From positions 744,001 through 808,000 of the forward strand of contig NZ_JAGSHX010000001.1 in the NCBI RefSeq assembly GCF_018138715.1: 64,000 nucleotides of DNA, read 5' to 3'. The stretch comes from Streptomyces asiaticus. GTDB lineage: Bacteria; Actinomycetota; Actinomycetes; Streptomycetales; Streptomycetaceae. The position numbers and the translations under genes are program-made. How positions within the stretch are numbered: the first letter of the stretch is position 1; the number at the start of each line of letters is the position of its first letter. This document shows, piece by piece, positions 410-17,096 of this stretch. The notes under the pieces are model-generated. The model saw only the letters and a program-made list of their open reading frames with translations. It made no database searches and was not told the DNA's origin.

Positions 410-1348
410 ATGGCCACTCACGTGAAGCGGGCGTATCGGTACCGCTTCTATCCGACCGGCGCGCAGGCGGTGGAGCTGTCGCGCACGTTCGGTTGCGTGC
501 GGAAGGTCTACAACATGGCGCTCGCGGCCCGTACTGAGGCGTGGACGTTGCGTCAGGAGCGGGTCAGCTACAACGCGACGTCGGCGATGCTGACGGCGTG
601 GAGGAAGACCGGGGAACTGGCCTTCCTCAACGATGTGTCGTCGGTCCCGCTCCAGCAGGCCCTGCGGCACCTCCGGGCGGCGTTCACCGCGTTCTTCGCC
701 CAGCGGTCGAAGTACCCGCTGTTCACGTCGCGCAAGAGATCTCGCAAGTCCGCCGAGTACACCTCCAGCGCGTTCCGGTTCCGGGAGGGGAAGCTGACAC
801 TGGCGAAGATGGATCAGCCGCTGGACGTCGCCAGGGTCTACGCCCGCATCGCCGACCGTCGCCGTGACCATCTGCACAAGCTGACCACTCGACTCGTGCG
901 TGAGAACCAAACGCTCGTGATCGAGGACCTCGCCGTCCGGAACATGCTCAGCAACGGCAAGTTGTCCCGGGCGATCTCCGACGCGGCATGGTCGCAGTTC
1001 CGGAGCATGCCGGAGTACAAGGCCGCCTGGTACGGCCGCGAAGTGATCGCGGTCGACCGCTGGTTCCCCTCCTCCAAGCTGTGCTCCGTGTGCGGCACCC
1101 TGCAAGGGAAGATGCCGCTCGGCGTCCGCACCTGGACGTGCGACTGCGGCACGACCCATGACCGGGACGTGAACGCGGCGAGGAACCCTCTGGCCGCCGG
1201 ACTGGCGGTGTCGGCCTGTGGAGCCGGTGTAAGACCTCAACGGGAGTCCTCCCGGACGGGGCAGTCGGTGACGAAGCAGGAAGCCCTACGGCGCGAGCCG
1301 CAGGAATCCCCCTCGTTTCGTTTACGAGAGGGAGGAAGTCAACGGTGA
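410..1348 (+). pseudogene. tnpB: TnpB (RNA-guided nuclease family) with an in-frame internal deletion
   Basis: The 312-residue frame has the TnpB N-terminal helical part (RAYRYRFYPTGAQ, FGCVRKVYN), the RuvC-II glutamate (LVIEDLAVRNM), the zinc finger (CSVCG...CDCG) and the RuvC-III aspartate (HDRDVNAARN). The sequence jumps from KLTLAKMDQPLD directly to VARVYARIADRRRDHLHK. Family members have about 80-90 residues between these blocks, including the beta-strand core and the GxDxG-type RuvC-I motif with the first catalytic aspartate. The deletion keeps the frame open, but two of three catalytic residues cannot cleave DNA. The 3' end (to about 1342) would normally also encode the reRNA/omega-RNA. 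The stop at 1346-1348 lies just outside the element. Confidence 0.8.
1308..1331. repeat. Right-end hairpin of the IS605-type element
   Basis: CTCGT (1312-1316) pairs with ACGAG (1324-1328) around a TTCGTTT loop, and flanking C and G runs extend the stem with a bulge. This is the expected right-end structure, followed by GGAAGTCAA at the element border. In intact elements the same region is the 3' part of the TnpB guide RNA. Confidence 0.55.
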
Positions 1349-4468: not shown

Positions 4469-5020
4469 GTGCAGAGACGAGCGATGAATCTGATGGCGGC
4501 CGTGGTATGCGCCGGTGCCGTCGTGGTGGGTGCCGGTGCTCCGGCGAATGCGGTGGAGTCCGAGCCGGAAGTCATTCCGATCGACCTCCTGCTGGCCGGA
4601 TCCTATGCGGATTCGGTCCGGGATGCGATGGGCATATGGAACAAGGCCGTTCCGGGAATCAGGTTCGTCGAGCAGGACACCCCGGCGGCTTTACGGGTCA
4701 AGGAATACACGACCGCGAACGGAACCGGTTCCCACGCATTTGTCAATGGTTTGGGCAGGGGCTGGGTCTACCTCGAAACCGGGGATGCCCAGAAGTACAA
4801 GCCGTCCCGTATCGCCGTGCATGAACTGGGGCACATTCTGTCGCTCAGCGACCTCGGACCGGGCAGTGTCTGCTCCAAGGTGATGTCCGGAGCCTGGGCC
4901 GGCCCCGAGTGCACCAACGATCAGCCGGACGCGGAAGAAGCCGCCGAAGTCGCGGATTTCTTCGCCGTGCACGATGTCGGTGACCCGGTACCGGGCTGGG
5001 GCACTCCCTCGGAGGGCTGA
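4469..5020 (+). CDS. Snapalysin-like extracellular metalloprotease (M7)
   Basis: The zinc motif HELGHILSLSD (HExxHxxxxxD, aspartate as third ligand) followed by CSKVMSGAWAGPEC is the snapalysin pattern, including the two cysteines of the disulfide after the active site. A Sec signal (LMAAVVCAGAVVVGAGAPANA) precedes it. GTG 4469 is chosen because GGAG (4456-4459) is well spaced from it; ATG 4484 or ATG 4454 are alternatives. Snapalysins are small neutral proteases secreted by streptomycetes. The usual divergent LysR activator is absent here. Confidence 0.8.
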   Translation: MQRRAMNLMAAVVCAGAVVVGAGAPANAVESEPEVIPIDLLLAGSYADSVRDAMGIWNKAVPGIRFVEQDTPAALRVKEYTTANGTGSHAFVNGLGRGWVYLETGDAQKYKPSRIAVHELGHILSLSDLGPGSVCSKVMSGAWAGPECTNDQPDAEEAAEVADFFAVHDVGDPVPGWGTPSEG

Positions 5021-5034
5021 ACACGCCGTCCGCG

Positions 5035-5061
5035 TGGCCGACCGCCCGATTCGGTCGGCCA
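5035..5061 (+). terminator. Stem-loop terminator after the snapalysin-like gene
   Basis: TGGCCGACCG (5035-5044) pairs perfectly with CGGTCGGCCA (5052-5061) around a 7-nt loop, 15 bp after the protease stop. Confidence 0.75.
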
Positions 5062-5160
5062 CCCGCCGTACCGCCCACCCGCCGTACCGGCCGCTCACCT
5101 CCGGCGCTCTCGCGCAGCCGGAACGTATTGATCAAGCTCTCAACTGGCTGTTCCGCCTCG

Positions 5161-5182
5161 GGGAGGCATGCGCATGCCTCCC
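5161..5182. promoter_or_regulatory. 22-bp perfect palindrome upstream of the metal-chelate/isonitrile operon
   Basis: GGGAGGCATGC is followed at once by its exact complement GCATGCCTCCC, about 90 bp before the binding-protein start. It does not look like the iron box (TTAGGTTAGGCT type) or the Zur box known from Streptomyces. It could be an operator for an unidentified regulator or a hairpin in the leader. Confidence 0.45.
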
Positions 5183-5271
5183 AACGGGCGGGAACCGATG
5201 CCCTATTCGCCACGACTACTGGACCGGGGTGACGTTCCCTCCCCCTGTGGCAAGTGGATCCAGGAGTTTCG

Positions 5272-6342
5272 ATGCGTTCTCGTGTGTGGTGGGGTGCGAC
5301 GGCTGTCGTGCTGGGCGGCCTCCTCGTGGCGGGCTGTGGCGACGGAGGCGGCAGTGGGGACGGCGACACGGCGGGCGCCGGGAAGCCCGCCACCGGCGGC
5401 TACCCGGTCACCGTCACCGACTGCGCGGGCGCCGAGACCACGTTCTCGAAGGCACCCGAGAGGATCGTCACCAGTAACGCCTCCAGTCTGGAACTGCTGC
5501 TCCGCCTGGGCGCCGGTGACAAGGTGCTCGGCACCGGCTTCCCGCCCGGCAAGGGCACGCTGCCCGGTGAACTCGACGCGCGGGCGCGGAAGGTGAAGGT
5601 GCTCGCCCAATCCGTGATCCCGAAGGAGAAGCTCCTCGGCTCCGGTGCGGATGTGTACATCGACACCTTCGCCTCGATGAACATGGGCGGCGGCATGGGC
5701 GACGCTCCGACGGAGGAGGAGTACAAGGCGGCCGGGATCAAGCACATCTACCTCAAGTCCACCGCCTGTGCAGCGCGGAACAAGCGCGCACTGACCGAGT
5801 TGTCCGCGGTGGAGGCCGACATCACCTCCCTCGGCGCGGTCACCGGCACGAGCACGAAGGCGAAGGAACTCGTCGACGGCATGAAGGAGAAGGTGGGCGC
5901 CGTCCAGAAGGCGGTCGGCGGGACGGCGGAGGACGAGCGGCCGACGTACTTCTTCTTCGACTACGACGCCGGGACCAAGCAGCCCACCGCCGTATGCGGG
6001 AGGCAGGTCGCCAACGCCGTGATCACTCTGGCCGGTGCCCGCAATGTCTTCGCCGACTGCGACGGCGACTACAAGCAGGTCGGCTGGGAGGATGTCATTT
6101 CCAGGAACCCGGACTGGATCCAGCTGGGCGTCCGTAACCGGGGCAGCGAGGCGGCGAACGAGAAGGCGTTCGACGAGGCGCGGAAGTGGCTCGAGTCGAA
6201 CTCCGCCACCAAGGGCCTGAAGGCCGTCAAGGAAGGCCACTTCCTGCGCATCGGCTCCGAGCAGACCACCATCGCCGGCGTCGAGAACGCCGACACCGTC
6301 CAGCAGATCGCCAAGACCCTCTACCCGGGCAAGGTCGGCTGA
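5272..6342 (+). CDS. ABC importer, metal-chelate substrate-binding lipoprotein
   Basis: A 356-residue protein with a lipobox (LLVAGC) and the periplasmic-binding fold of siderophore/cobalamin transporters: FSKAPERIVTSNASSLELLLRLGAGDKVLG, later NPDWIQLG and VQQIAKTLYP. ATG 5272 has AGGAG five bases upstream. A methionine-rich loop MNMGGGM (residues 136-142) lies where ligand-contacting residues are expected, which is unusual and may fit a copper ligand (inference). It is the first gene of a co-directional operon with its permease (2-bp gap) and ATPase, followed by exporter and biosynthesis genes, so the cargo is probably the operon product in metal-bound form. Confidence 0.85.
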   Translation: MRSRVWWGATAVVLGGLLVAGCGDGGGSGDGDTAGAGKPATGGYPVTVTDCAGAETTFSKAPERIVTSNASSLELLLRLGAGDKVLGTGFPPGKGTLPGELDARARKVKVLAQSVIPKEKLLGSGADVYIDTFASMNMGGGMGDAPTEEEYKAAGIKHIYLKSTACAARNKRALTELSAVEADITSLGAVTGTSTKAKELVDGMKEKVGAVQKAVGGTAEDERPTYFFFDYDAGTKQPTAVCGRQVANAVITLAGARNVFADCDGDYKQVGWEDVISRNPDWIQLGVRNRGSEAANEKAFDEARKWLESNSATKGLKAVKEGHFLRIGSEQTTIAGVENADTVQQIAKTLYPGKVG

Positions 6343-6344
6343 CC

Positions 6345-7439
6345 GTGCTCGACGTCACGGTGAGCGGAAAGGACACCGACGACGGCGCCACCGGCGCCCC
6401 CGCGCGCACGCGGCGTTCCGTGCCCGCCGGGCCGCTGGCGCTGCTCCTCGCGGTCGCGCTGCTCGCGGCCCTCACAGCGGCGGTCGCCTGGGGCTCCACG
6501 TCGATCCCGCCGGGCGAGGTGTGGAGCGTGGTCTGGCGCAGGCTGACCGGCCATGACCCCAGGCCCGGCACGAATGACCTGATCGTCTGGCAACTGCGCC
6601 TTCCTCGCGCCCTGTTGGCCGCGCTGGTGGGTGCCGGGCTCGGACTGGTCGGTACGGCGATGCAGGCTCTCGTCCGCAACCCGCTGGCCGACCCGTACTT
6701 CCTGGGCGTCTCCAACGGCGCCTCACTCGGCGCCGTCGCCGCCATCGTCCTGGGCCTCGGCACCGGGGGCGCTCTGGGTCTCGGCCTGTCCGCCGCCGCG
6801 TTCGCGGGAGCCGTGGCCACCTTCGCCCTCGTCTGGGCGGTGGCCCGGCGCGGCGGGGGATTCGCGCCGCTCAGACTGGTGCTCGCCGGGGTGGCCATCG
6901 GGCAGTTCCTGTCCGGCTTCACCAGCTACCTCGTCCTCCAGGCCGGGGACGAGCAGCAGACGCACAGTGTGCTGTTCTGGCTCATGGGCAGCCTGGGCGG
7001 CGCGAGCTGGCCCCTGCTGGCCGCCCCGGCGGTGGCCGTTCCGGCGGTCCTGCTGCTGCTCCAGGCCCGGGCCCGGGGGCTCAACGCGCTGCTGATGGGT
7101 GATGAGACGGCCGCCGGGCTCGGCATCGACGTCGTACGGCTGCGCCGTGAGCTGTTCGCGGTCACCAGCCTGCTCACCGGCGTCCTCGTCGCGGTCTCCG
7201 GGGCCATCGCCTTCGTCGCGCTCATGGTCCCCCACGTCTGCCGTCTGGTCGTCGGCGGTGACCACCGTCGCCTGCTGCCCGTGTCGGCGCTCTTCGGCGC
7301 GCTGCTGCTGGTGGTGGTCGACCTGGTGTGCCGCACGGCCATGGAGGCGCAGGAACTGCCGGTCGGGGTCGTCACCTCGCTGATCGGCGCTCCGGCGCTG
7401 CTGTATCTGCTGGACCGGCGGTTGGGGAGCGGGAGTTGA
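6345..7439 (+). CDS. FecCD-family permease of the metal-chelate importer
   Basis: A 364-residue multi-spanning protein with the family hallmarks LRLPRALLAALVGAGLGLVGTAMQALVRNPLADPYFLGVSNGA and GAIAFVALMVPHVCRLVVGGDHRRLLP. GTG 6345 lies 2 bp after the binding-protein stop, so translation is probably coupled. It forms the membrane channel for the ligand captured by the upstream lipoprotein. Confidence 0.88.
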   Translation: MLDVTVSGKDTDDGATGAPARTRRSVPAGPLALLLAVALLAALTAAVAWGSTSIPPGEVWSVVWRRLTGHDPRPGTNDLIVWQLRLPRALLAALVGAGLGLVGTAMQALVRNPLADPYFLGVSNGASLGAVAAIVLGLGTGGALGLGLSAAAFAGAVATFALVWAVARRGGGFAPLRLVLAGVAIGQFLSGFTSYLVLQAGDEQQTHSVLFWLMGSLGGASWPLLAAPAVAVPAVLLLLQARARGLNALLMGDETAAGLGIDVVRLRRELFAVTSLLTGVLVAVSGAIAFVALMVPHVCRLVVGGDHRRLLPVSALFGALLLVVVDLVCRTAMEAQELPVGVVTSLIGAPALLYLLDRRLGSGS

Positions 7440-7513
7440 GGACCGGACGGAGGGCGGGAGACGCGGTCCTGCCCGAGGAAGTGGGAGCCGAGGACGGACC
7501 GGGGGAGCGTCGG

Positions 7514-8287
7514 TTGCGGATCGACATCGAGGACCTGAATGTCGCGTACGCCGGACGCACGGTGGTGGCCGGCGCCCACCTCATCGCGGCCGCGGGCGAG
7601 ATCACCGGCCTGGTCGGGCCCAACGGCAGCGGCAAGTCCACGCTGCTGCGGACCGTGTACCGGCACCTGAAGCCCGTCGCCGGGCGCGTTCTGCTCCAGG
7701 GCACCGACATCCGCGAGCTGAGCCCCGCCCGCTCGGCCCGGCACATCGCCGCCCTTCCGCAGGAGCGCGGTGAGGACTTCGAGCTGACGGTGCGTGAGGT
7801 CGTCGCCATGGGGCGCACCCCCTACCAGCGGGCGTTCGCCGGGGAGGACGCCGCCGACCGGGACATGGTCGCCCGTGCCCTCGCCGATGTCGGCATGGCG
7901 GACCACTCCGCCCGCCGCTTCACCGAGCTGTCCGGCGGCGAACGTCAACGCGTGCTGCTGGCCCGCGCGTTCGCCCAGGCGACGGACGTCCTGGTCCTGG
8001 ACGAACCGACGAACCACCTCGACATCCGCCACCAGGTCGAACTGCTCGCCCTGCTGCGCGGCCACCGTCGTACGACCCTGGTCTCGCTGCACGACCTCAA
8101 TGCCGCCGCTTCGGTGTGCGACCGGCTCCACGTCCTGCACGAGGGCCGCGTGGTCGCCTCCGGCGCACCCCGCGACGTGCTGCGACCGGCCCTGCTGGCC
8201 GAGGTGTTCGGCGTGCGCGCGGCCGTGGTCGAGCACCCGCTGACCGGGGACCCGCTGATCGCCTTCGACCACCGGGAGGGCGCATGA
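7514..8287 (+). CDS. ATPase of the metal-chelate importer
   Basis: An ABC ATPase of the FepC/BtuD type: Walker A GPNGSGKST, signature LSGGERQRVLLARA, Walker B VLVLDEPTNHLD and a following H-loop (LVSLHDLN). TTG 7514 is preferred because GGGGGAG (7501-7507) precedes it and it gives a normal N-terminus (RIDIEDLNVAYAG). A TTG at 7436, overlapping the permease stop, is the alternative and would add 26 residues. The 3' end overlaps the MFS gene by ATGA. Confidence 0.85.
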   Translation: MRIDIEDLNVAYAGRTVVAGAHLIAAAGEITGLVGPNGSGKSTLLRTVYRHLKPVAGRVLLQGTDIRELSPARSARHIAALPQERGEDFELTVREVVAMGRTPYQRAFAGEDAADRDMVARALADVGMADHSARRFTELSGGERQRVLLARAFAQATDVLVLDEPTNHLDIRHQVELLALLRGHRRTTLVSLHDLNAAASVCDRLHVLHEGRVVASGAPRDVLRPALLAEVFGVRAAVVEHPLTGDPLIAFDHREGA

Positions 8288-9735
8288 CGGACGACGCTTC
8301 CGGTGCGGAGCGGCGCGGGGACGTGCCGGAACGGCCCGGGGACGTGCCGAAGCGGCGCGGGGACGTACCCGAAGTCCACGACCGCTGGCTCCTGGTGTCC
8401 GTGGCGGGCGTCCTGTCGTTCGTGGCGATGCTCGACATGAACATCGTGAACGTGGCGCTCGCGGACATCTCCGAGGGCCTGGGGGTGTCGGCCGCGACGG
8501 CGCAGTGGGCGGTCCTGGGCTATCAACTCCCCGTCGTCGCCCTGCTGTTGCCCGTCAGCCACTGGCTCGACGACATGAGTGTCCGCCCCGCGCTGCTGGC
8601 CGCGACCGCCGGCTTCGGACTGTGCGGCGCGCTCGCCGCCGCGTCCCCCTGGGCGTTCTGGCTGATCGCCGCCCGGATCGGACAGGGCGCGTGCGGCGCC
8701 GTGCTGTTCGTGCTGATGCCGGTGCTTGCGGTCCGCTCCGTGCGGCCGGAGCTGCGCGGGCGCGCGATGAGCGTGCCGGCGACCCTCGGCCCCCTGGGCG
8801 CCGTCGTCGGACCGGCGGTCGGAGGGCTGCTCCTGGACCATCTGTGCTGGCGCTGGATCTTCCTGGTCAAGATCCCGCTCTGCCTGGTGGCGCTGGCGGT
8901 GGTGTGGCGGGCGATGCCCCGGGGCGGGCGCCTGCGCGGCCCTGACCGGCGCTCCCTTGTCGATACGGCCCTGGTGGCCACTGGAGTAACGATCCTGCTG
9001 CTGTCCCTGACCCTGGGCTCCGACGCGCCCGCCTGGCTCGCCCTCGTCCTCGTCGCCGTACCGCCGCTGTGGTGGTGGCTGCGGGGCCCGGGCGGCCGTC
9101 CGGTGACCGGGCTGCTGCGGGCCGCGGGGCTGCTGCGGGTGCACGGCGCGGTGCTGGCGCTGGCGGTGGGCTTCGCCGCCATGCACTACGTGGTCGCCCT
9201 GCGCCTCCAGCGCGACGAGGACGTCAGCGCGACCACCACGGGCCTGACCGTGCTCGCCTTCCCCCTCGGCATGGGGCTGGCGGGCCCCCTCGGCGGACGG
9301 CTCGCCGACCGCTACGGTGCCAGGCCCGTCGCGGTCACCGGTGCCGCCCTCACCGCCACCGGACTGCTGCTGCTCGTCCTGCCGGGCGACGGCTGGTCCC
9401 CGCCCGAGGTGGCCTGGCGGCTGGTCCTGGCCGGAATCGGCATGGGGCTGACCGGAGGACCCACCCAGGCCCTGGTCATGGGCGCCGCTCCACCGGGTCG
9501 CGCCGCCACGGTCGGCTCCACGGTTCAGCTCGCCCGCAGCCTCGGCTTCACCCTCGGCCCGGCTCTGGCCACGGCGGCCTGGAGGCTGACGGGCCCGGAC
9601 GGCGGCGCACGGACCGGCCTGGCGCTGGCCGCCACCGCCGCCTGCCTCGCCGTGCCACTGCTCGCCCTGCCCGCCCGGGGCCCGGCGAACCTCCCCGGGA
9701 GCGCCACCGACGCGGCACCCGCCGCACCCCGCTGA
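8284..9735 (+). CDS. MFS transporter (DHA2-like), probable product exporter
   Basis: The protein of about 483 residues has multiple membrane segments and the MFS motif-C-like stretch GPLGAVVGPAVGGLLLDHLCWRWIFLVKIP. This places it with drug:H+ antiporters. Its cytoplasmic N-terminus holds three 7-residue repeats (ERRGDVP, ERPGDVP, KRRGDVP) encoded by three 21-bp repeats at 8308-8370. It overlaps the ATPase gene by 4 bp and stands 37 bp before the amidotransferase gene. Export of the small molecule made by the next three genes, whose metal complex the ABC system would take back, is the likely job. Confidence 0.82.
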   Translation: MTDDASGAERRGDVPERPGDVPKRRGDVPEVHDRWLLVSVAGVLSFVAMLDMNIVNVALADISEGLGVSAATAQWAVLGYQLPVVALLLPVSHWLDDMSVRPALLAATAGFGLCGALAAASPWAFWLIAARIGQGACGAVLFVLMPVLAVRSVRPELRGRAMSVPATLGPLGAVVGPAVGGLLLDHLCWRWIFLVKIPLCLVALAVVWRAMPRGGRLRGPDRRSLVDTALVATGVTILLLSLTLGSDAPAWLALVLVAVPPLWWWLRGPGGRPVTGLLRAAGLLRVHGAVLALAVGFAAMHYVVALRLQRDEDVSATTTGLTVLAFPLGMGLAGPLGGRLADRYGARPVAVTGAALTATGLLLLVLPGDGWSPPEVAWRLVLAGIGMGLTGGPTQALVMGAAPPGRAATVGSTVQLARSLGFTLGPALATAAWRLTGPDGGARTGLALAATAACLAVPLLALPARGPANLPGSATDAAPAAPR

Positions 9736-9772
9736 GCCATCGATCCCCAGCCCTCACCGAGGAGTCGTACCC

Positions 9773-11599
9773 ATGTGCGGAATCACCGGCTGGGTGTCCT
9801 TCCACCAGGACGCCCGCACCCAGGCCCCGGTCATCGAAGCCATGACCGCCACGCTCACCCCGCGCGGGCCCGACGCGGGCGGAGTCTGGCTCGGCGAGCA
9901 CGCCGCGATCGGCCACCGCCGCCTGGCCGTCATCGACATCGAAGGCGGCGTACAGCCGATGACCGACCGGCCGGAAGCCCCGACGAGCGTCCTCACCTAC
10001 AGCGGTGAGATCTACAACCACCATGAGCTCCGCGCCCGACTGAGGAACCTGGGCCACGAGTTCCGCACCCACAGTGACACCGAGGTGGTGTTGCGCGCCT
10101 ACGCCGAGTGGGGCGAGGCGGTGGCCGACCACCTGGACGGCATGTTCGCGTTCGCGGTGTGGGACGAGCGGAGGCGGCGGCTGCTCCTGGTCCGCGACCG
10201 GCTGGGCGTCAAGCCCCTGTTCTGGGCGGCCGTCGACGGCGGACTGGCCTTCGCCTCCGAACCCAAGGCGCTCTTCGCCCACCCCGAGATACGGCCGCGG
10301 GTGGACGCGGACGGGCTGCGCGAGGCGTACAGCCTGCTGTTCAACACCGGTCCGACGGTGTGGTCGGGCGTGCGGGAGGTCGAGCCCGGCGGCCTGCTCC
10401 TCCTGGACCGGCACGGCATCCGCGAACGCCGCTACTGGCGGCTGGAGGCCGGCGCCCACCCGGACGACCGGGACGCGACCGTCGCCCGCGTGCACGACCT
10501 GGTGAGCACCGCCGCCCGCGCCCAGCTGGAGGCCGACGTCCCCCTCTGCTCCCTGATGTCCGGCGGCCTCGACTCCACCGTCCTGACCGCCCTGCTCGCC
10601 GACGAACTGCGCCTGCGCGAGGGCCCCGACGCCCGCATCCGCTCCTACGCCGTCGACTACAGCGACCAGGCCGAGAGCTTCACCGGCGACGTCCTGCGCA
10701 CCGGCCACGACACCCCGTACGCCACGGAAGCGGGCGCGTTCATCGGCACCGATCACAGCACGGTCGTACTGGACCCGCGTGCCCTGCTCGACCCCGAGCA
10801 CCGCAAGGCCGTGGTCGTGGCCCGCGACTCGCCGATCGGCGTCGGCGACATGGACACCTCCCTCTACCTCCTCCTCGGGGAGATCCGGGAACACTCCACC
10901 GTCGCCGTGTCCGGTGAGGCCGCCGACGAGGTCTTCGGCGGCTACCCCTGGTTCCACGACCCCAAGGCGCTCGCCGCGCCCACCTTCCCCTGGCTGCTGG
11001 TGACCGGCGACGAGGCCGCCATGCCGCTCAACCCCGAACTCGACCTGCGCATCGGCGAGTTCCGCGACGACACCTACCGCGGCGCCCTGGCCGCCGTACC
11101 GCACACCGAAGACGAGTCGGAGACCGAGCACCGGCAACGCGAGATGCAGTACCTGTCGCTCACCCGCTGGCTGCGCCAGCTCCTGCACCGCAAGGACCGG
11201 CTGAGCATGGCACAGGGCCTGGAAGTGCGCGTCCCCTACTGCGACCACCGGCTCGTCGAGTACGCCTTCACCTCCCCATGGGCGCTGAAGAGCTTCGACG
11301 GCCGGGAGAAGAGCCTGCTGCGCGCGGCCGGCACCGGCCTGGCCCCCGAGTCGGTGCTGCACCGGCCCAAGAACCACTACCCGGCCACCCACCACCCCGA
11401 CTACAACCGCGGCCTCCAGGACATGGCCCGCGACGCGCTCGCCGACGACCGGGTCCGCTCCCTCGCCGACGAGACCCGCATCAAGCCCTGCCTCGACACC
11501 GCGCCCGATCAACTCCGATGGGGCCACCGGCTCCGCCTCGAACGCGTCGTCGACCTCGCCCTCTGGCTCGACCACCACCAGCCCGACCTCGCCCTCTGA
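9773..11599 (+). CDS. Asparagine-synthetase-like glutamine amidotransferase
   Basis: 608 residues with both AsnB domains: an N-terminal class II glutaminase with nucleophile Cys2 (MCGITGWV, then RGPD, HRRLAVID, SGEIYN, SDTEVVL) and an ATP-pyrophosphatase synthetase domain with the PP-loop SGGLDS (residues 263-268) and SGEAADEVFGGY. It moves ammonia from glutamine to an adenylated carboxylate. Its place between an exporter and P450/isonitrile synthase genes suggests it amidates a pathway intermediate instead of aspartate, giving a primary carboxamide (inference). The SD is GAGGAG at 9759-9764. Confidence 0.85.
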   Translation: MCGITGWVSFHQDARTQAPVIEAMTATLTPRGPDAGGVWLGEHAAIGHRRLAVIDIEGGVQPMTDRPEAPTSVLTYSGEIYNHHELRARLRNLGHEFRTHSDTEVVLRAYAEWGEAVADHLDGMFAFAVWDERRRRLLLVRDRLGVKPLFWAAVDGGLAFASEPKALFAHPEIRPRVDADGLREAYSLLFNTGPTVWSGVREVEPGGLLLLDRHGIRERRYWRLEAGAHPDDRDATVARVHDLVSTAARAQLEADVPLCSLMSGGLDSTVLTALLADELRLREGPDARIRSYAVDYSDQAESFTGDVLRTGHDTPYATEAGAFIGTDHSTVVLDPRALLDPEHRKAVVVARDSPIGVGDMDTSLYLLLGEIREHSTVAVSGEAADEVFGGYPWFHDPKALAAPTFPWLLVTGDEAAMPLNPELDLRIGEFRDDTYRGALAAVPHTEDESETEHRQREMQYLSLTRWLRQLLHRKDRLSMAQGLEVRVPYCDHRLVEYAFTSPWALKSFDGREKSLLRAAGTGLAPESVLHRPKNHYPATHHPDYNRGLQDMARDALADDRVRSLADETRIKPCLDTAPDQLRWGHRLRLERVVDLALWLDHHQPDLAL

Positions 11600-11612
11600 G
11601 GAGCGCCCCCGC

Positions 11613-12890
11613 ATGACCCTCCAGGAGCCCCTGCCCGCCATGGACGCGCACGGCCCACACGACGAACCCCTGCCCGACCCGGTCCCGCTCATGGGCTGCC
11701 CGTACAAGGCCAATCCCTATCCGCTGTACGAGCGGATGCGTGCGAGCGGCCCCGTCCATCGCGTCCTGTTCCCCAGCGGTGTCCACGCCTGGCTCGTCAC
11801 CGGTTACCAGGCCGCCCACGCCGCGCTGAACGACGACCGCCTGGGCAAGAACCACGACCGCGGCAACGACCACTGGCGCGCCCGTGCCTCGATCATGCCC
11901 GAGCCGCTCCACTCCCAGCTCCAGGTGCACCTCCTGCACCAGGACCCGCCCCACCACACCCGCATGCGGCGCTTCGTCACCGACGCCTTCACCCCGCGCC
12001 GTATCGAGCGGCTGAGGCCCCGGTTCCAGGAACTGGCCGGCGCCCTCGTCGACGCCCTCCCGGACACCGGTCCCACGGACCTCGTCACCGGCTTCGCCGC
12101 CCCCTTTCCGTTCCGGGTCCTCGCCGAAGTCATCGGCCTGCCATCCGAGTTGACCGCCCGCTTCGACCGCGACTGGGGCAAGGTCGTCCAGCCGGTGGGC
12201 CCCACCGACCCCGGACGCCCGCTGTACGAGGCCCGTCTGCACGGACTACAGGGCTACATCGCGGACGTCGTCGCCCACAAGCGCGAACACCGGGAGGACG
12301 ACCTGCTCAGCAGCCTCGTCGAGGCCCGCGACCGCCGAGAGCTGTCGCAGGAGGAGCTGGACTCGATGATCTTCCAGCTCCTGGTGGCCGGCCAGGAGCC
12401 GGTCACCAATCAGATCACCACCTCCCTGATCGCCCTCTTCCGCCACCCCGCCGAGCTCGCCCGGCTGCGCGACGACCCGGACCTGACGCCCCGCGCGGTC
12501 GACGAACTCCTCCGCCACGACAGCGCCTTCGAGCTGACCACATGGCGCTTCCTCGACCAGGACGGCGACCTGCACGGTACGAGGATCCCGGCCGGCGACT
12601 CGGTGATCATCTCGCTGTGCGCCGCCAACCGCGACCCGCGCCGCTTCCCCGACCCCGACGCACTCGCCCTCGACCGCTCGCCCAACCCCCATCTGGCCTT
12701 CGGCCACGGCATCCACTTCTGTCCCGGAGCCGCCCTCGCCCGCGCCGAGCTCCAGATCGCCCTGGACACCCTCCTGGGCCGCCTGCCCGGACTGCGCCTG
12801 GCCATCGACGACGCGGACATCGCGTGGATCCCGGCGGTCCTCGGACGGGGCACCAACCACCTGCCCGTCGGCTACGACCGGCGCATATGA
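11613..12890 (+). CDS. Cytochrome P450 of the isonitrile cluster
   Basis: A 425-residue bacterial P450 with heme loop FGHGIHFCPGAALAR (ligand Cys370), ExxR as E298-LL-R301 and an I-helix LLVAGQEPVTNQI. The catalytic threonine expected right after the acidic residue (E262) is a proline (Pro263). Loss of that threonine is known in several phenol-coupling P450s such as CYP158A2, OxyB and CYP121, so oxidative coupling of phenols is plausible here (inference). It starts 13 bp after the amidotransferase gene, with the SD in that gene's stop region, and overlaps the isonitrile synthase gene by ATGA. Confidence 0.88.
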   Translation: MTLQEPLPAMDAHGPHDEPLPDPVPLMGCPYKANPYPLYERMRASGPVHRVLFPSGVHAWLVTGYQAAHAALNDDRLGKNHDRGNDHWRARASIMPEPLHSQLQVHLLHQDPPHHTRMRRFVTDAFTPRRIERLRPRFQELAGALVDALPDTGPTDLVTGFAAPFPFRVLAEVIGLPSELTARFDRDWGKVVQPVGPTDPGRPLYEARLHGLQGYIADVVAHKREHREDDLLSSLVEARDRRELSQEELDSMIFQLLVAGQEPVTNQITTSLIALFRHPAELARLRDDPDLTPRAVDELLRHDSAFELTTWRFLDQDGDLHGTRIPAGDSVIISLCAANRDPRRFPDPDALALDRSPNPHLAFGHGIHFCPGAALARAELQIALDTLLGRLPGLRLAIDDADIAWIPAVLGRGTNHLPVGYDRRI

Positions 12891-13804
12891 CCCACCGCTC
12901 CACGAGCGGCATCAGCGCCGCCATCCTCAACCTGCTCCTGCCGCACCACCGCACGACCGGGCCTTCGCCCGGGGGAGCGGTGGCCTTCCCGCACCAACTG
13001 CGCCAGATCGCCGGCTTCGTACGCGCCGGAGAACCCGTGGTCTTCACCCTGCCCGGCTTCCCCTGCAAGTCCCCCAACCCCGCCAAGGTGCTCGGCCACC
13101 TCCCCGACCAGGGCGAACGCCTCTCCCTCGACTTCCTGAACACCCTGTGCGAGGAGATCGAGCGGATCCACCCGCCGGGCGCCCGCGTGATCATCTGCTC
13201 CGACGGCCATGTCTTCGGCGACCTGATCCGCGTCCCGGACGACCACATCGACGCCTACGCGGACGCACTCGGACACCTCATACAGGAGGCGGGCCTGCAC
13301 CGCCTCTCCGTCTTCGACCTGCGCGATGTGCTGGGTGACCTGCCCCACGGCGCCAAGCGCGCCCGGGTGCACCAGGGTTACGCCCCCACCCTGGAGGCGC
13401 TGCGGGCGGAGGTCCGCTCCGAGGGCCACACCCTGGCCCTGTACCGGGGCATCACCCGATTCCTCGTCGACGACACCGCCGACTTCACCGGCACCCGCTC
13501 CGCCCTCCAGCGCGAGTGCCGCCAACGCGCGTACGGCGTCATTCAGCGCAGTCGCGCCTGGGGAGATCTGATCGCCGAGCACCACCCTCGCGCCGTCCGG
13601 TTGTCCATTCACCCCCAGCCCATCGGCGCCCCGAAGTTCGGCATCCGCCTCCTCGACGCTCCCGACGTCTGGACCACCCCCTGGCACTCCGCCGCCCTGC
13701 GCCGCGCCGACGGCACCTGGACCCTCCTGCCCCGCACCCGCGCGCGGCAGCTCGGCCGTCTCGTCCACCGGCACGGCAGACCGAGCCATTACGAACAGGG
13801 CTGA
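12887..13804 (+). CDS. Isonitrile synthase, DIT1/PvcA/IsnA family
   Basis: The 305-residue protein has the conserved blocks of the L-tyrosine/L-tryptophan isonitrile synthase family: FTLPGFPCKSPNPAKVLG, LPDQGERLSLDFL, IICSDGHVFGDLI, HQGYAPTLEALR and RLSIHPQPIGAPKFGIRLL. Known members convert the alpha-amino group of Tyr or Trp to an isonitrile using ribulose 5-phosphate as carbon source. The usual partner PvcB/IsnB (Fe/2-oxoglutarate decarboxylating desaturase) is missing, so the carboxylate is probably retained, which fits the neighbouring amidotransferase. It is translationally coupled to the P450 gene and is the last gene of the operon. Confidence 0.9.
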   Translation: MTHRSTSGISAAILNLLLPHHRTTGPSPGGAVAFPHQLRQIAGFVRAGEPVVFTLPGFPCKSPNPAKVLGHLPDQGERLSLDFLNTLCEEIERIHPPGARVIICSDGHVFGDLIRVPDDHIDAYADALGHLIQEAGLHRLSVFDLRDVLGDLPHGAKRARVHQGYAPTLEALRAEVRSEGHTLALYRGITRFLVDDTADFTGTRSALQRECRQRAYGVIQRSRAWGDLIAEHHPRAVRLSIHPQPIGAPKFGIRLLDAPDVWTTPWHSAALRRADGTWTLLPRTRARQLGRLVHRHGRPSHYEQG

Positions 13805-13928
13805 GCCCGTGCCCCGCTGTGGCACGCGTCACCACGAGGCATCGGAACTCGGGTGTCGGCCGTTCCGACTCCTCTACCGGTGCGGCTGGACTGGCTGAGG
13901 CCGTACGAAGCGATCGGAGTTTCCTCAC

Positions 13929-14186
13929 ATGGAGCAGAATCACCGACCCGCCCGCCGCCGGGCGGCCGCGTCGCTGTCCGGAGCATTGCCCCCGCCGGCG
14001 CTGTGCGGCTTCCTCCTGCTGCTCGTGGTGGTGTTCGCCGCTTCCTACGCCGTCGGCACGAGCGTCGGGCCCGTCGCCCCCGGCATGCACCGCACCGGCA
14101 CGACACAGGACGGCTCAGGCGGCGGTCACGACGGCGGCGGCATGGAGATGGACGGCATGGGCACGGACCACGGAAGCGGGCGCTGA
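13929..14186 (+). CDS. Small membrane protein with Met/His-rich tail, copper operon
   Basis: 85 residues: a basic N-terminus, one membrane segment (ALCGFLLLLVVVFAASYAVG) and a tail with GMHRTG, GGGHDGGGMEMDGMGTDHGSG. Such Met/His-rich tails bind copper. It overlaps the copA start (TGATG), so the two are translationally coupled. It starts 124 bp after the isonitrile synthase gene. GGAG at 13915-13918 is the SD. A metal-buffering or sensing role at the membrane is inferred. Confidence 0.75.
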   Translation: MEQNHRPARRRAAASLSGALPPPALCGFLLLLVVVFAASYAVGTSVGPVAPGMHRTGTTQDGSGGGHDGGGMEMDGMGTDHGSGR

Positions 14187-16513
14187 TGGCCGCCGAATCG
14201 ACTTCCCGGACGGTCGTGACCGACCTCTCCGTCGGCGGAATGACCTGTGCGGCCTGTGTGCGGCGCGTCGAGAAGAAGCTGGCCAGGCTGGACGGGGTCA
14301 CGGCGACGGTGAACCTCGCCACCGGCCGGGCCCGGGTGAACCACCCGCCCGGCGTCGGCCCGGACCAGCTGGTCGCGGCCGTCGAGCAGGCCGGCTATTC
14401 CGCCGTGCTCCCCGAGCCGCCCAGGAAGCGACGGCGCGAGGACGGGGATGGAGGGGACGAAGCGGAGGACGCCCGGCAGGAGCGCGACCGGCTGGTGGTC
14501 ACGGCCCTGCTCGCGGTGCCGGTGCTGGTCCTGTCGATGGTTCCCGGTACGCAGTTCCGCAACTGGCAGTGGCTGTGCTTCGTACTCGCCGCGCCCGTCG
14601 TCGTCTGGGGAGCCTGGCCCTTCCACCTGCGGGCGGCGCGCGGACTGCGACACTCGGCGGCGACCATGGACACCCTGGTGTCGCTGGGAGTCGCGGCTTC
14701 CTTCGCCTGGTCCTCCTACGCGCTGTTCCTCGGCGGCGCCGGCGCCCCCGGCATGCGGATGCCGTTCAGCCTGGTGCCCACCGCCTCGGACGGCGTCGCC
14801 CACATCTATCTGGAGGCCGCCGTCGGCGTACCGCTGTTCGTCCTGGCGGGCCGCTACCTGGAGGCACGGGCCCGGCGGGGAACCGGCGCGGCACTGCGCT
14901 CACTGGCCCGGCTGGCCGCCAAGGAGGTCTCGGTACGCGACGGCGACGGCGAGCGCCTGATCCCGATCGGACAACTGCGGGTCGGTCAGGTCTTCGTCGT
15001 CCGGCCCGGGGAGCGCCTCGCCACCGACGGCACGGTCGTGGAGGGCGGCTCGGCCCTCGATCTCTCCCTGGTGACCGGGGAGAGCGAGCCGGTGGAGGTC
15101 GGCCCCGGCGCGCCGGTGATCGGCGGTGCCGTCAACGCCGGAGGGCTGATTCTCGTACGGGCCACCGCGGTGGGAGCCGACACGCAACTGTCCCGTATCA
15201 CCCGGCTGGTGACCGAGGCCCAGGCGGGCAAGGCACGGGCGCAGCGGCTCGCCGACAAGGTCGCGGGGGTCTTCGTCCCCGTCGTGCTCGCCCTGGCCGT
15301 CACGGTGCTCGGATTCTGGCTCGGGGCCGGCGCCGAGCCGCAGGCGGCGATCACCGCGTCCGTGGCCGTCCTGGTCGTGGCGTGCCCCTGTGCGCTGGGC
15401 CTGGCGACCCCCACCGCGCTGATGGCGGCGACCGGCCGGGGCGCCCAACTCGGCGTCCTGGTCAGCGGGGCACGGGCGCTGGAGGGACTGCGGCACCTCG
15501 ATGCCGTGGTGCTCGACAAGACCGGCACTCTCACCTCCGGGCATATGAGCGTCGCCCGGGTCACGGCCGTGCCGGGCGGACTCGGCGAGGAGCGAGTGGT
15601 CCGGCTGGCGGGCGCGGTCGAACAGGGATCGGAACATCCGCTGGGGCGTGCCATCACCGCGTATGCCCGGCGAACCGTTCCCGGGGAGCCGCTTCCGGCC
15701 GTGGCCGACTTCCTCGCGCTGCCGGGGAGGGGCGTCCGCGGGCGGGTGGCGGGACGGCTGGTCGAGGTCCTGGCCCCGGACGACGTGGTGCCGCCCACCC
15801 TGGCCCAGGCGCTGCCGGCCGGCGGGACCGCCGCCCGCACCCCGGTCGTGGTCCGCGTCGACGGCGAGCCCGAGGCACTGATCGAGCTCGGGGACGTCCT
15901 GCGACCGGGAAGTTACCGGGCCGTGGACCGGCTCCGCCGCCTGGGGGTGCGACCGGTGCTCGCCACCGGCGACCGGGAGGCACCCGCCCACGCCGTCGCA
16001 GCCGACCTCCGCATCGAGGAGGTGCACGCCCGCTGTACCCCGGAGGACAAGGCCGCTCTCGTCCGCGAGCTGCGGGAGCAGGGCTGCCGGGTCGCCGTCG
16101 TCGGCGACGGTGTCAACGACGCGGCCGCCCTGGCCGGCGCCGACCTCGGCATCGCCATGGGCACGGGCACGGACGTGGCGATCGGGGCGGCCGACGTGAC
16201 CCTGGTACGCGGTGACATCGAGACCCTGGCGGACGCGGTCGGCCTCGCCCGCAGTGCGCTGGGCACGATCCGGGCCAACCTGCTCTGGGCGTTCGGCTAC
16301 AACGTCGTGACGGTGCCGCTGGCCATGGTCGGACTGCTCAACCCCATGTTGGCCGCGGCCGCGATGTCGGTCAGCTCGCTGCTCGTGGTCGGCAACAGCC
16401 TGCGGCTGCGTGTCTGGCAGCCGTCACCGACGGGCAGACGCCGGCAGCCGTCACCGACCGGCGGACCGACCGGCGGACGCCCTTCCCGGCCCGCCGCCCG
16501 GACGCCACTGTGA
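14186..16513 (+). CDS. copA: Copper-translocating P1B-type ATPase
   Basis: 775 residues: one N-terminal heavy-metal domain (GGMTCAACVRR, CxxC at 21-24), the membrane metal site CPC (400-402), phosphorylation site D444KTGT, TGES actuator loop, hinge GDGVNDAAALA, and YN plus MSVSSLLV motifs in the last membrane helices, typical of Cu+-ATPases. The C-terminus ends in a repetitive Pro/Arg tail (QPSPTGRRRQPSPTGG). It pumps Cu+ out of the cytoplasm. The neighbours (Met/His-rich small protein upstream, PCuAC-like protein 70 bp downstream) make this a copper efflux operon beside the putative metallophore genes. Confidence 0.92.
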   Translation: MAAESTSRTVVTDLSVGGMTCAACVRRVEKKLARLDGVTATVNLATGRARVNHPPGVGPDQLVAAVEQAGYSAVLPEPPRKRRREDGDGGDEAEDARQERDRLVVTALLAVPVLVLSMVPGTQFRNWQWLCFVLAAPVVVWGAWPFHLRAARGLRHSAATMDTLVSLGVAASFAWSSYALFLGGAGAPGMRMPFSLVPTASDGVAHIYLEAAVGVPLFVLAGRYLEARARRGTGAALRSLARLAAKEVSVRDGDGERLIPIGQLRVGQVFVVRPGERLATDGTVVEGGSALDLSLVTGESEPVEVGPGAPVIGGAVNAGGLILVRATAVGADTQLSRITRLVTEAQAGKARAQRLADKVAGVFVPVVLALAVTVLGFWLGAGAEPQAAITASVAVLVVACPCALGLATPTALMAATGRGAQLGVLVSGARALEGLRHLDAVVLDKTGTLTSGHMSVARVTAVPGGLGEERVVRLAGAVEQGSEHPLGRAITAYARRTVPGEPLPAVADFLALPGRGVRGRVAGRLVEVLAPDDVVPPTLAQALPAGGTAARTPVVVRVDGEPEALIELGDVLRPGSYRAVDRLRRLGVRPVLATGDREAPAHAVAADLRIEEVHARCTPEDKAALVRELREQGCRVAVVGDGVNDAAALAGADLGIAMGTGTDVAIGAADVTLVRGDIETLADAVGLARSALGTIRANLLWAFGYNVVTVPLAMVGLLNPMLAAAAMSVSSLLVVGNSLRLRVWQPSPTGRRRQPSPTGGPTGGRPSRPAARTPL

Positions 16514-16583
16514 TGCCCCTGTTCGCCGCTTGTGGACCGCCTGCCCGCGACCGCGGCCCGACACCGAGGTGGAGACCAGCCCG

Positions 16584-17096
16584 ATGACGAACCCCTCCTG
16601 GACGCCCAGCCACCGTCGCCTCACGGACTCCCTGCGGGCCGCGGTCGCTCCGGCCTGCGCCTGTGTCCTGGCGCTGGGTGGCCTCGCCGTGTGGACCGCC
16701 GCGGGCAACGCGGGCAGTCCTCCGCGTATCGACGTCACCGGCGCACGGCTCTTCCTCCCCGCCCCGGGAGTGCCGCGGACCGCCGCGTTCTTCCGGATCA
16801 CCAACACCGGCGGTGTGCGGGACCGGTTGGTCGAGGTGACGTCCTCCGCGGTCACCGGGGAGGTCTCGCTCAGCCGCCACCGGATGACCGGGCGGGGATC
16901 GGCCTACCCGCAGGCCGCGGAGTCCCTGCCGGTTCCGGCGGGCGGCTCGCTCGACATGTCACCGTTCACCAGCGATGTGACCGTCCCGGCCACGGCCCGC
17001 TGGCGGGCCGGAGACCTGGTGCCCTTCACCCTCCGTTTCGAACACAGCGGACGTGTCGAGACCAACGCCGTCGTCGTGCGGCCCGGCGAGGGCTGA
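16584..17096 (+). CDS. PCuAC-like copper chaperone, membrane-anchored
   Basis: A 170-residue protein with an N-terminal membrane or signal segment (PACACVLALGGLAVWTAAGNAG) and a cupredoxin-like PCu(A)C domain: RIDVTGARLFLPAPG, AAFFRITNTGGVRDRLVEVTS, RHRMTGRG and LPVPAGGSLDMSPFTSDV. Family members deliver extracytoplasmic Cu+ through a H-M-x-M set of ligands. Here His and Met of RHRM are kept, but the usual HxM near the end is replaced (SDVTV), so metal binding may be weaker or different. ATG 16584 has GGTGGAG upstream. Confidence 0.75.
   Translation: MTNPSWTPSHRRLTDSLRAAVAPACACVLALGGLAVWTAAGNAGSPPRIDVTGARLFLPAPGVPRTAAFFRITNTGGVRDRLVEVTSSAVTGEVSLSRHRMTGRGSAYPQAAESLPVPAGGSLDMSPFTSDVTVPATARWRAGDLVPFTLRFEHSGRVETNAVVVRPGEG

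What the first reader, a model, noticed from the sequence alone, without database searches (positions are those of the whole stretch)
5272..13804. Isonitrile synthase, amidotransferase and P450 in one operon with a metal-chelate importer: a possible new isonitrile metallophore pathway
Seen: SBP, permease, ATPase, MFS, AsnB-like, P450 and DIT1/PvcA-like genes run in one direction with overlaps or small gaps. Known: these synthases turn the amine of Tyr/Trp into an isonitrile, and isonitriles bind Cu(I) and other soft metals. PvcB-type decarboxylases are absent, so the carboxylate should stay, and the AsnB-like enzyme could make it a carboxamide. A phenol-coupling P450 could then dimerise it. 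As I recall, hazimycins are exactly such dityrosine bis-isonitrile amides. Inference: the operon makes a hazimycin-like compound and recovers its metal complex.
Basis: partly seen in the sequence, partly recalled or inferred. Interest (0 to 1): 0.9.

Follow-up and report, generated by a model that had tools for sequence, protein, structure and literature searches.

The report
Copper-scavenging isonitrile operon under SigC-type control
A soil bacterium carries a set of genes that very likely makes, exports and re-imports a copper-grabbing isonitrile compound of the hazimycin type, and a conserved DNA switch suggests that it is turned on by the same kind of copper-starvation regulator that mycobacteria use for a chemically different copper scavenger.

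Summary
The seven genes are there as described (5272-13804, + strand), with conserved motifs. [quoted passage not shown] text not held). The cassette recurs: 62 of 136 distinct PvcA-family loci have importer, AsnB and P450.

Two things were missed. First, the unit continues to about 17096 with a small His/Met-rich protein, a copper P-type ATPase and a PCuAC copper chaperone. Second, both parts are preceded by GGAAC-N17-CGACT. That element precedes a cassette gene in 96 of 96 importer-bearing loci; 210 sites have spacing 17, against a mean of 5.6 for 19 other spacings. A SigC-like sigma gene lies in 74 of these 96 loci; in the window's genome it is on another contig. In five mycobacteria-like genomes the element stands between sigC and a copper-type ATPase gene.

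Best reading: a hazimycin-type copper scavenger system switched on by a SigC-type copper-starvation sigma factor, with candidate copper sensors (Met/His-rich membrane protein, zf-HC2 anti-sigma) beside the sigma gene. Chemistry and regulation are inferred from sequence and untested.

The parts
5191..5219 (+). SigC-type promoter-like element GGAAC-N17-CGACTAC, 81 nt before the SBP start
   Evidence: 96 such sites before SBP genes in 137 sources
5272..6342 (+). substrate-binding lipoprotein of a FecCD-type importer; Met-rich segment SMNMGGGMG
   Evidence: Pfam Peripla_BP_2; the eight commonest forms of this segment (52 of 94 relatives) are all Met-rich
6345..7439 (+). FecCD permease
   Evidence: Pfam PF01032 2.3e-92; GTG start at 6345 is my choice
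7328..8287 (+). ABC ATPase (ORF limits; the real start is probably near 7480)
   Evidence: Pfam ABC_tran
8284..9735 (+). MFS exporter
   Evidence: Pfam MFS_1 5.1e-47; in other loci often with its own element (43 sites)
9773..11599 (+). AsnB-like glutamine amidotransferase, MCG N-terminus and SGGLDST motif kept
11613..12890 (+). cytochrome P450, heme motif FGHGIHFC; I-helix AGQEPVT with Pro at the usual Thr
   Evidence: Pro at that place in 104 of 104 relatives compared
12887..13804 (+). PvcA/DIT1-type isonitrile synthase
   Evidence: Pfam 3.1e-75; NF045653 275.7 bits, under its cut-off of 600; PDB 3e59
13844..13870 (+). second SigC-type promoter-like element GGAAC-N17-CGACT, 85 nt before HM
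   Evidence: one of six such HM sites
13929..14186 (+). HM: small protein with a hydrophobic stretch and a His/Met-rich tail (by eye)
   Evidence: relatives in the same place
14186..16513 (+). copper-translocating P1B ATPase (HMA domain, CPC motif)
   Evidence: TIGR01511 489.7 bits over cut-off 397; Pfam
16584..17096 (+). PCu(A)C copper chaperone (start uncertain)
   Evidence: Pfam PF04314 1.2e-17 (on the longer ORF 16410-17096)

Best explanation
The region is a hazimycin-type copper-scavenging (chalkophore) cassette. Inferred chemistry: the PvcA-type enzyme turns the amine of an aromatic amino acid, most likely tyrosine, into an isonitrile; the AsnB-like enzyme turns the carboxylate into a carboxamide; the P450 couples two such units; the MFS protein exports the product. 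Inferred uptake: the SBP-FecCD-ATPase importer takes the copper complex back, and the HM, CopA-type ATPase and PCuAC proteins hand copper on, probably to cuproenzymes such as cytochrome oxidase. Inferred control: the importer/biosynthesis unit and the copper-handling unit are each read from a promoter GGAAC-N17-CGACT by a SigC-like (ECF36) sigma factor active in copper starvation. In 74 of 96 importer-bearing relatives the sigma gene lies in the fetched locus, often with a Met/His-rich membrane protein; in the window's genome both lie on another contig. What is shown is gene content, co-conservation, the element and its exact spacing, and sigma linkage. Product, metal and regulation are inferred.
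For: Families. Co-conservation: 62 of 136 distinct loci with importer+AsnB+P450+PvcA. Element: 210 sites at spacing 17 against a mean of 5.6 (0-13) for 19 other spacings in 137 sources; at least one before a cassette gene in 96 of 96 importer loci, 6 of 12 loci with P450 but no importer, 1 of 1 with AsnB+P450 but no importer, and 1 of 27 loci with neither importer nor P450. Sigma: SigC-like gene in 74 of 96 importer loci; the L182 and L178 sigmas pass NCBI's SigC cut-off (232.6 and 228.3 against 219). 49 of 49 genomes with an importer cassette have the sigma at E 1e-35, against 216 of the other 342 (presence read off the printed list by eye). The window's genome has one such sigma, beside a Met/His-rich membrane protein and a PepSY_TM gene. 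In five of 15 mycobacteria-like genomes with SigC the element stands divergent beside sigC and in front of a P1B ATPase with an HMA domain; in three (one of them among the five) it precedes a PPE gene. Nine sites precede an HMA protein like CopZ (one tested). Papers (passages): M. tuberculosis SigC drives ctpB and the ppe1-nrp chalkophore operon and protects from copper starvation (PMC7924339; PMC9147137); the C. glutamicum sigma-C regulon is activated in copper deprivation (PMC7337898).
Against: The four Streptomycetaceae sigmas tested, the window's included, fall under the SigC equivalog cut-off (151.8 to 206.8 against 219). The element was first noticed upstream of SBP genes, so its presence there is not an independent test. 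Genome-wide in G000 the relaxed element (up to one mismatch) is not enriched over the reversed control (179 against 547), nor is a stricter form with spacing 15-19 (3 against 3, though only the cassette's has spacing 17); in 19 SigC-bearing genomes counts are 85 against 96. Support comes from placement and spacing. No full element lies before the window genome's own sigma gene. In the mycobacteria-like stretches several sites have no clear target, and in L302 the site points away from the ATPase. PvcA scores far under the curated tyrosine-isonitrile synthase cut-off, so tyrosine is not shown. The closest solved AsnB relative is a hydroxyamidotransferase, which would give a hydroxamate rather than an amide.
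Confidence: 0.75

Rival explanations
1. Same cassette, but the product is not hazimycin: the AsnB-like enzyme makes a hydroxamate, or the P450 makes a different oxidation, giving another copper or iron ligand.
For: Best solved relative of AsnB is 7ylz 'hydroxyamidotransferase', 555 bits over 606 residues. FecCD-type importers mostly carry iron chelates and cobalamin (general knowledge).
Against: Copper genes adjoin and share the promoter element. The sequence alone does not settle what the amidotransferase accepts.
Confidence: 0.2
2. The conserved GGAAC-N17-CGACT block is not a sigma promoter but the operator of a transcription factor or part of a leader RNA.
For: By eye, a GC-rich hairpin follows the element in many loci.
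Against: The element is asymmetric with fixed spacing, as in ECF promoters (general knowledge); a SigC-like sigma gene is linked; the element stands beside sigC in five mycobacteria-like genomes; no Rfam family matches window 4900-5400 (best 13.7 bits, gathering 59.5).
Confidence: 0.1
3. The cassette serves another metal such as zinc or iron, and the copper genes are chance neighbours.
For: The SBP, permease and ATPase pass no copper-specific family; their best NCBIfam hits are putative F420-0 importers, under cut-off.
Against: Copper ATPase and PCuAC genes recur beside cassettes of different layout; nine sites precede an HMA protein like CopZ; in M. tuberculosis the sigC growth defect is mended by copper and not by zinc (PMC7924339, passage).
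Confidence: 0.07

Closest known systems
Hazimycin biosynthesis cluster (Matsuda et al. 2024, J Antibiot 77:228-237)
   Same: As recalled: isonitrile synthase, amidotransferase, P450 with importer/exporter genes; copper-binding product in Kitasatospora and Streptomyces
   Different: The paper could not be read here and its sequence was not compared. Whether it reports the sigma factor, the promoter element or the copper ATPase is unknown to me
SigC (ECF36) copper-starvation regulon of Mycobacterium tuberculosis and Corynebacterium glutamicum
   Same: SigC-like sigma; in M. tuberculosis a P1B ATPase gene and an isonitrile chalkophore operon in the regulon (PMC7924339, PMC9147137, PMC8999054, PMC7337898, passages)
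   Different: There the chalkophore is an NRPS-made diisonitrile lipopeptide; here a PvcA-type isonitrile pathway with its own ABC importer
PvcA and the pvc pathway of Pseudomonas aeruginosa (species and pathway recalled)
   Same: Isonitrile synthase family (3e59, E 1.4e-82)
   Different: No PvcB among the scanned neighbours; AsnB, P450 and importer instead
SF2768 diisonitrile chalkophore of Streptomyces thioluteus
   Same: Isonitrile copper scavenger in Streptomyces (PMC9600254, passages)
   Different: Made by an NRPS cluster; its isonitrile enzyme is of the Fe/2OG type (recalled), not PvcA

Membership tests
Hazimycin-type chalkophore cassette | PvcA-type synthase, AsnB-like amidotransferase and P450 adjacent | tested here: met
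   gene list of the published cluster is recalled
Hazimycin-type chalkophore cassette | importer and exporter genes adjacent | tested here: met
Hazimycin-type chalkophore cassette | direct sequence match to the published Kitasatospora cluster | not tested
   no record of it at hand; eight other Kitasatospora loci match at about 62-80%, AsnB in three of the eight
Hazimycin-type chalkophore cassette | product is a dityrosine bis-isonitrile amide that binds copper | not testable with these tools
   needs chemistry
PvcA/DIT1 isonitrile synthase | Pfam PF05141 over gathering score, core motifs kept | tested here: met
   253.6 bits against 26.4; motifs
L-tyrosine isonitrile synthase NF045653 | score over the curated cut-off of 600 | tested here: not met
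   275.7 bits
SigC (NF007231 equivalog) | score over 219 bits | tested here: not met
   window genome's sigma 172.9, 172.3; L182 and L178 relatives pass. SigC-like, not SigC by this test
SigC regulon | copper P-type ATPase and chalkophore genes behind one promoter type | tested here: met
   elements at 5191 and 13844
SigC regulon | transcription depends on the sigma and on copper starvation | not testable with these tools
   needs RNA work
Copper-translocating P-type ATPase | TIGR01511 over cut-off | tested here: met
   489.7 against 397

The most novel reading that the evidence does not exclude
A SigC-type (ECF36) copper-starvation regulon is an old actinobacterial module that has taken up unrelated isonitrile copper scavengers: NRPS diisonitriles in mycobacteria and PvcA-type hazimycin cassettes in Streptomycetaceae and Pseudonocardiaceae. 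Its missing copper sensor is encoded beside the sigma gene: a Met/His-rich membrane protein and/or a zf-HC2 anti-sigma factor that holds the sigma when copper is bound.
Probability: 0.35. Interest if true: 0.85.

Novelty: new variant of a known kind. Interest (0 to 1): 0.62.

Why it matters
It links two copper fields studied apart: actinomycete isonitrile natural products and SigC-controlled copper acquisition. A 2021 paper says that no anti-SigC factor had been identified and asks how copper deficiency is sensed (PMC7924339, passage). The Streptomyces cassettes put candidate sensors beside the sigma gene in harmless, genetically workable bacteria, so the question becomes testable. It also suggests how to switch on silent hazimycin-type clusters: chelate copper or express the sigma gene.

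Tried and rejected
Rfam search of window 4900-5400 gave only a chance-level hit. A perfect palindrome at window 5161-5182 looked like an operator but was not listed for any of the other 99 upstream regions (three best palindromes printed per region), so I dropped it. I asked whether the Streptomyces Met/His-rich protein and the L182 zf-HC2 membrane anti-sigma are homologous: hhalign gives no support, so both stay as separate candidates. Pfam finds nothing in four Met/His-rich proteins tested. Whole-genome counts of the element gave no enrichment. The alignment A2 used a wrong frame for L178 and is not relied on; one search repeats it in the right frame. Two items (the L073 HMA protein and the L178 zf-HC2 protein) were given in a wrong frame and their empty results mean nothing; one search repeats both. 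I did not predict structures, since the tool returns no coordinates that would place the Met-rich SBP loop. Rows dropped: of the places, ten weak or partial ones were not fetched, 74 were; 15 of 16 f6 g13 genomes with a SigC hit went into (G703 was left out); of the sites only nine stretches from eight genomes were looked at. Loci are cut at about 10 kb, so 'no sigma in locus' understates linkage.
Full report
What is there. The window is 744001-808000 of contig C1 of an 11.88 Mb genome; the nearest named cassettes are in Streptomyces iranensis, S. endocoffeicus, S. rugosispiralis and S. niphimycinicus (PvcA 94, 93, 92 and 86%; tree). The seven genes of the finding are real and collinear, without internal stops. 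Downstream come a small His/Met-rich protein (13929-14186), a copper-translocating P-type ATPase (14186-16513, TIGR01511 489.7 bits over a cut-off of 397) and a PCu(A)C copper chaperone (to 17096).

Enzymes. The PvcA-type protein keeps the family's conserved motifs and matches solved PvcA structures, but scores 275.7 against a curated cut-off of 600 for tyrosine isonitrile synthase, so tyrosine is likely and not shown. The AsnB-like protein has the N-terminal MCG and SGGLDST motifs; the genome has relatives at 49% and 41%, so it is an extra copy. Its closest solved relative is a hydroxyamidotransferase, which leaves a hydroxamate product open. The P450 has a proline where the I-helix threonine usually stands, in all 104 relatives compared (103 AGQEPVT, 1 AGQDPVT); from general P450 knowledge this points to unusual oxygen chemistry and would suit radical coupling, but this is inference.

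How widespread. PF05141 hits occur in 63 of 391 genomes of the order, 61 of them in the same genus. I fetched 74 of the places (ten weak or partial ones left out) and 68 named loci by a scan of genome contigs with the window's own PvcA, which favours close relatives. These 142 loci are 136 distinct ones: 62 with importer+AsnB+P450, 30 with importer+P450 and no AsnB, 4 with importer only, 12 with P450 and no importer, 1 with AsnB+P450 and no importer, 27 with neither. In the 74 loci of the order sample alone, 28 have the full set. Named carriers of all or part of it include Streptomyces, Kitasatospora, Saccharothrix, Kutzneria, Saccharopolyspora (no close importer in the locus) and Protofrankia (importer and PvcA only, locus cut at the contig end). 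The gene set is therefore a known, recurring kind. On the PvcA tree the label 'importer without AsnB' needs 13 changes, at least 11 forced by well-supported branches, and 'importer with AsnB' needs 10, at least 6 forced; the labels mix importer and AsnB, and cut loci may hide genes, but AsnB seems to have come or gone several times. Those strains should make a product without the amide.

The control element. Regions upstream of SBP genes share GGGAAC and CGACTAC at a fixed distance. With GGAAC and CGACT as the pattern, spacing 17 gives 210 sites in 137 sources (136 loci and the window), while 19 other spacings give 0 to 13, mean 5.6. Of the 210, 96 precede SBP, 43 MFS, 30 P450, 6 HM, 5 other cassette genes and 30 none of these. 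The pattern was first seen before SBP, so the independent tests are the MFS, P450 and HM sites and the spacing. At least one site precedes a cassette gene in 96 of 96 importer loci, 6 of 12 loci with P450 and no importer, 1 of 1 locus with AsnB+P450 and no importer, and 1 of 27 loci with neither. Nine sites precede a small protein like the copper chaperone CopZ (the one tested is an HMA domain, 3e-17). The window has two sites: 5191, 81 nt before SBP, and 13844, 85 nt before HM. So the importer/biosynthesis unit and the copper-handling unit appear to share one control.

Which regulator. A SigC-like ECF sigma gene lies in 74 of the 96 importer loci (46 of 62, 28 of 30, 0 of 4), and within 700 bp upstream of SBP on the same strand in 47 of 102 SBP-bearing loci before removal of duplicates. 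The sigmas of L182 and L178 pass NCBI's SigC cut-off; four from Streptomyces and Kitasatospora score 151.8-206.8 against 219, so I call them SigC-like. The window's genome has a single such sigma, on C6, 55% identical to that of L182 with the next paralogue at 36%; the four near relatives also have one each, 95-97% identical to it. Every one of 49 genomes with an importer cassette has the sigma at E 1e-35, against 216 of the other 342 (Fisher p 1.3e-9, relatedness not corrected; presence read off the printed list by eye). The sigma is thus wider than the cassette. I then searched 15 mycobacteria-like genomes (15 of the 16 of group f6 g13 with a SigC hit, all over the cut-off; the name is my inference from PPE and ESX genes) and four others for GGGAAC-N17-CGACT. 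I looked at nine stretches from eight genomes, chosen because a site lay beside sigC or shared its first bases. In five genomes the element is divergent beside sigC and in front of a P1B ATPase with an HMA domain (all five Pfam-tested); in three it precedes a PPE-family gene (all three Pfam-tested). [quoted passage not shown] tuberculosis (PMC7924339, passages). The SigC recognition sequence itself is not printed in the passages I saw, and the 2007 source was not held.

Against this reading: raw genome-wide counts are not above control (179 against 547; 85 against 96), and no full element precedes the window genome's sigma gene (a one-mismatch site lies before the neighbouring PepSY_TM gene). 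Several sites in the mycobacteria-like stretches have no clear target, and the one in L302 points away from the ATPase.

Candidate sensor. Beside the sigma gene in many cassettes, and beside the window genome's sigma on C6, is a membrane protein with a loop rich in Met and His (18 aligned; no Pfam family in four tested). In some loci a zf-HC2 protein, typical of anti-sigma factors, lies divergent from the sigma gene (L057; L182; L177 and L178); zf-HC2 proteins with DUF2275 also lie among the copper genes of mycobacteria-like L296 and L302. The Met/His-rich protein and the L182 zf-HC2 protein are not recognisably related. PMC7924339 states that no anti-SigC factor had been identified and that copper sensing was open; PMC8999054 lists SigC as ECF36 and reports a conformational-change model. 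My proposal that one of these proteins senses copper is inference.

Mechanism, step by step. Shown by sequence: genes, families, co-conservation, elements, sigma linkage. From known families: PvcA makes isonitriles; P1B ATPases and PCuAC handle copper; SigC responds to copper starvation. Inferred: product of the hazimycin type, copper as the metal, re-import through the FecCD importer, hand-over to cuproenzymes, sigma-dependent induction.

Novelty. Hazimycin biosynthesis is published (Matsuda et al. 2024, seen only as a citation in PMC11085572). I found no paper that joins SigC-type control with PvcA-type cassettes in the search listings, but the hazimycin paper could not be read and may mention the sigma gene. 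I therefore rate it a variant of a known kind, with the regulatory link as the new part.

Noticed in passing
L147, 8585-10903 (Archangium lansinium): A P450-PvcA pair 82% and 77% identical to the window's sits in a myxobacterial contig without importer or element in the locus and without a SigC-like sigma in its genome at E 1e-30; it falls inside the Streptomyces clade of the PvcA tree: recent transfer between phyla, or a mixed assembly.
   Followed up: partly
upstream of SBP in many relatives, e.g. window 5219-5271: By eye, a GC-rich hairpin and a conserved GTACCGAGTGGATCC-like stretch lie between the element and the SBP start; a possible leader structure, not analysed.
   Followed up: no
L031-L036, L047: Another PvcA group (49-55% identical) pairs with an AsnB-like gene at 47-51%, without close importer or P450 and without the element before a cassette gene: perhaps a separate isonitrile-amide pathway.
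   Followed up: no
This hints at SigC-type control of a PPE/ESX unit.
   Followed up: partly
L303 3593-5083 (-) and L296 4-987 (-): A PepSY_TM protein neighbours the SigC-like sigma gene both in the window's genome and in a mycobacteria-like genome.
   Followed up: partly
window 410-1348: IS605 OrfB/TnpB-type protein.
   Followed up: no
window 4484-5020: Peptidase M7 (snapalysin-type) protein, Pfam 6.5e-20, just upstream of the cassette; not seen as part of it.
   Followed up: partly
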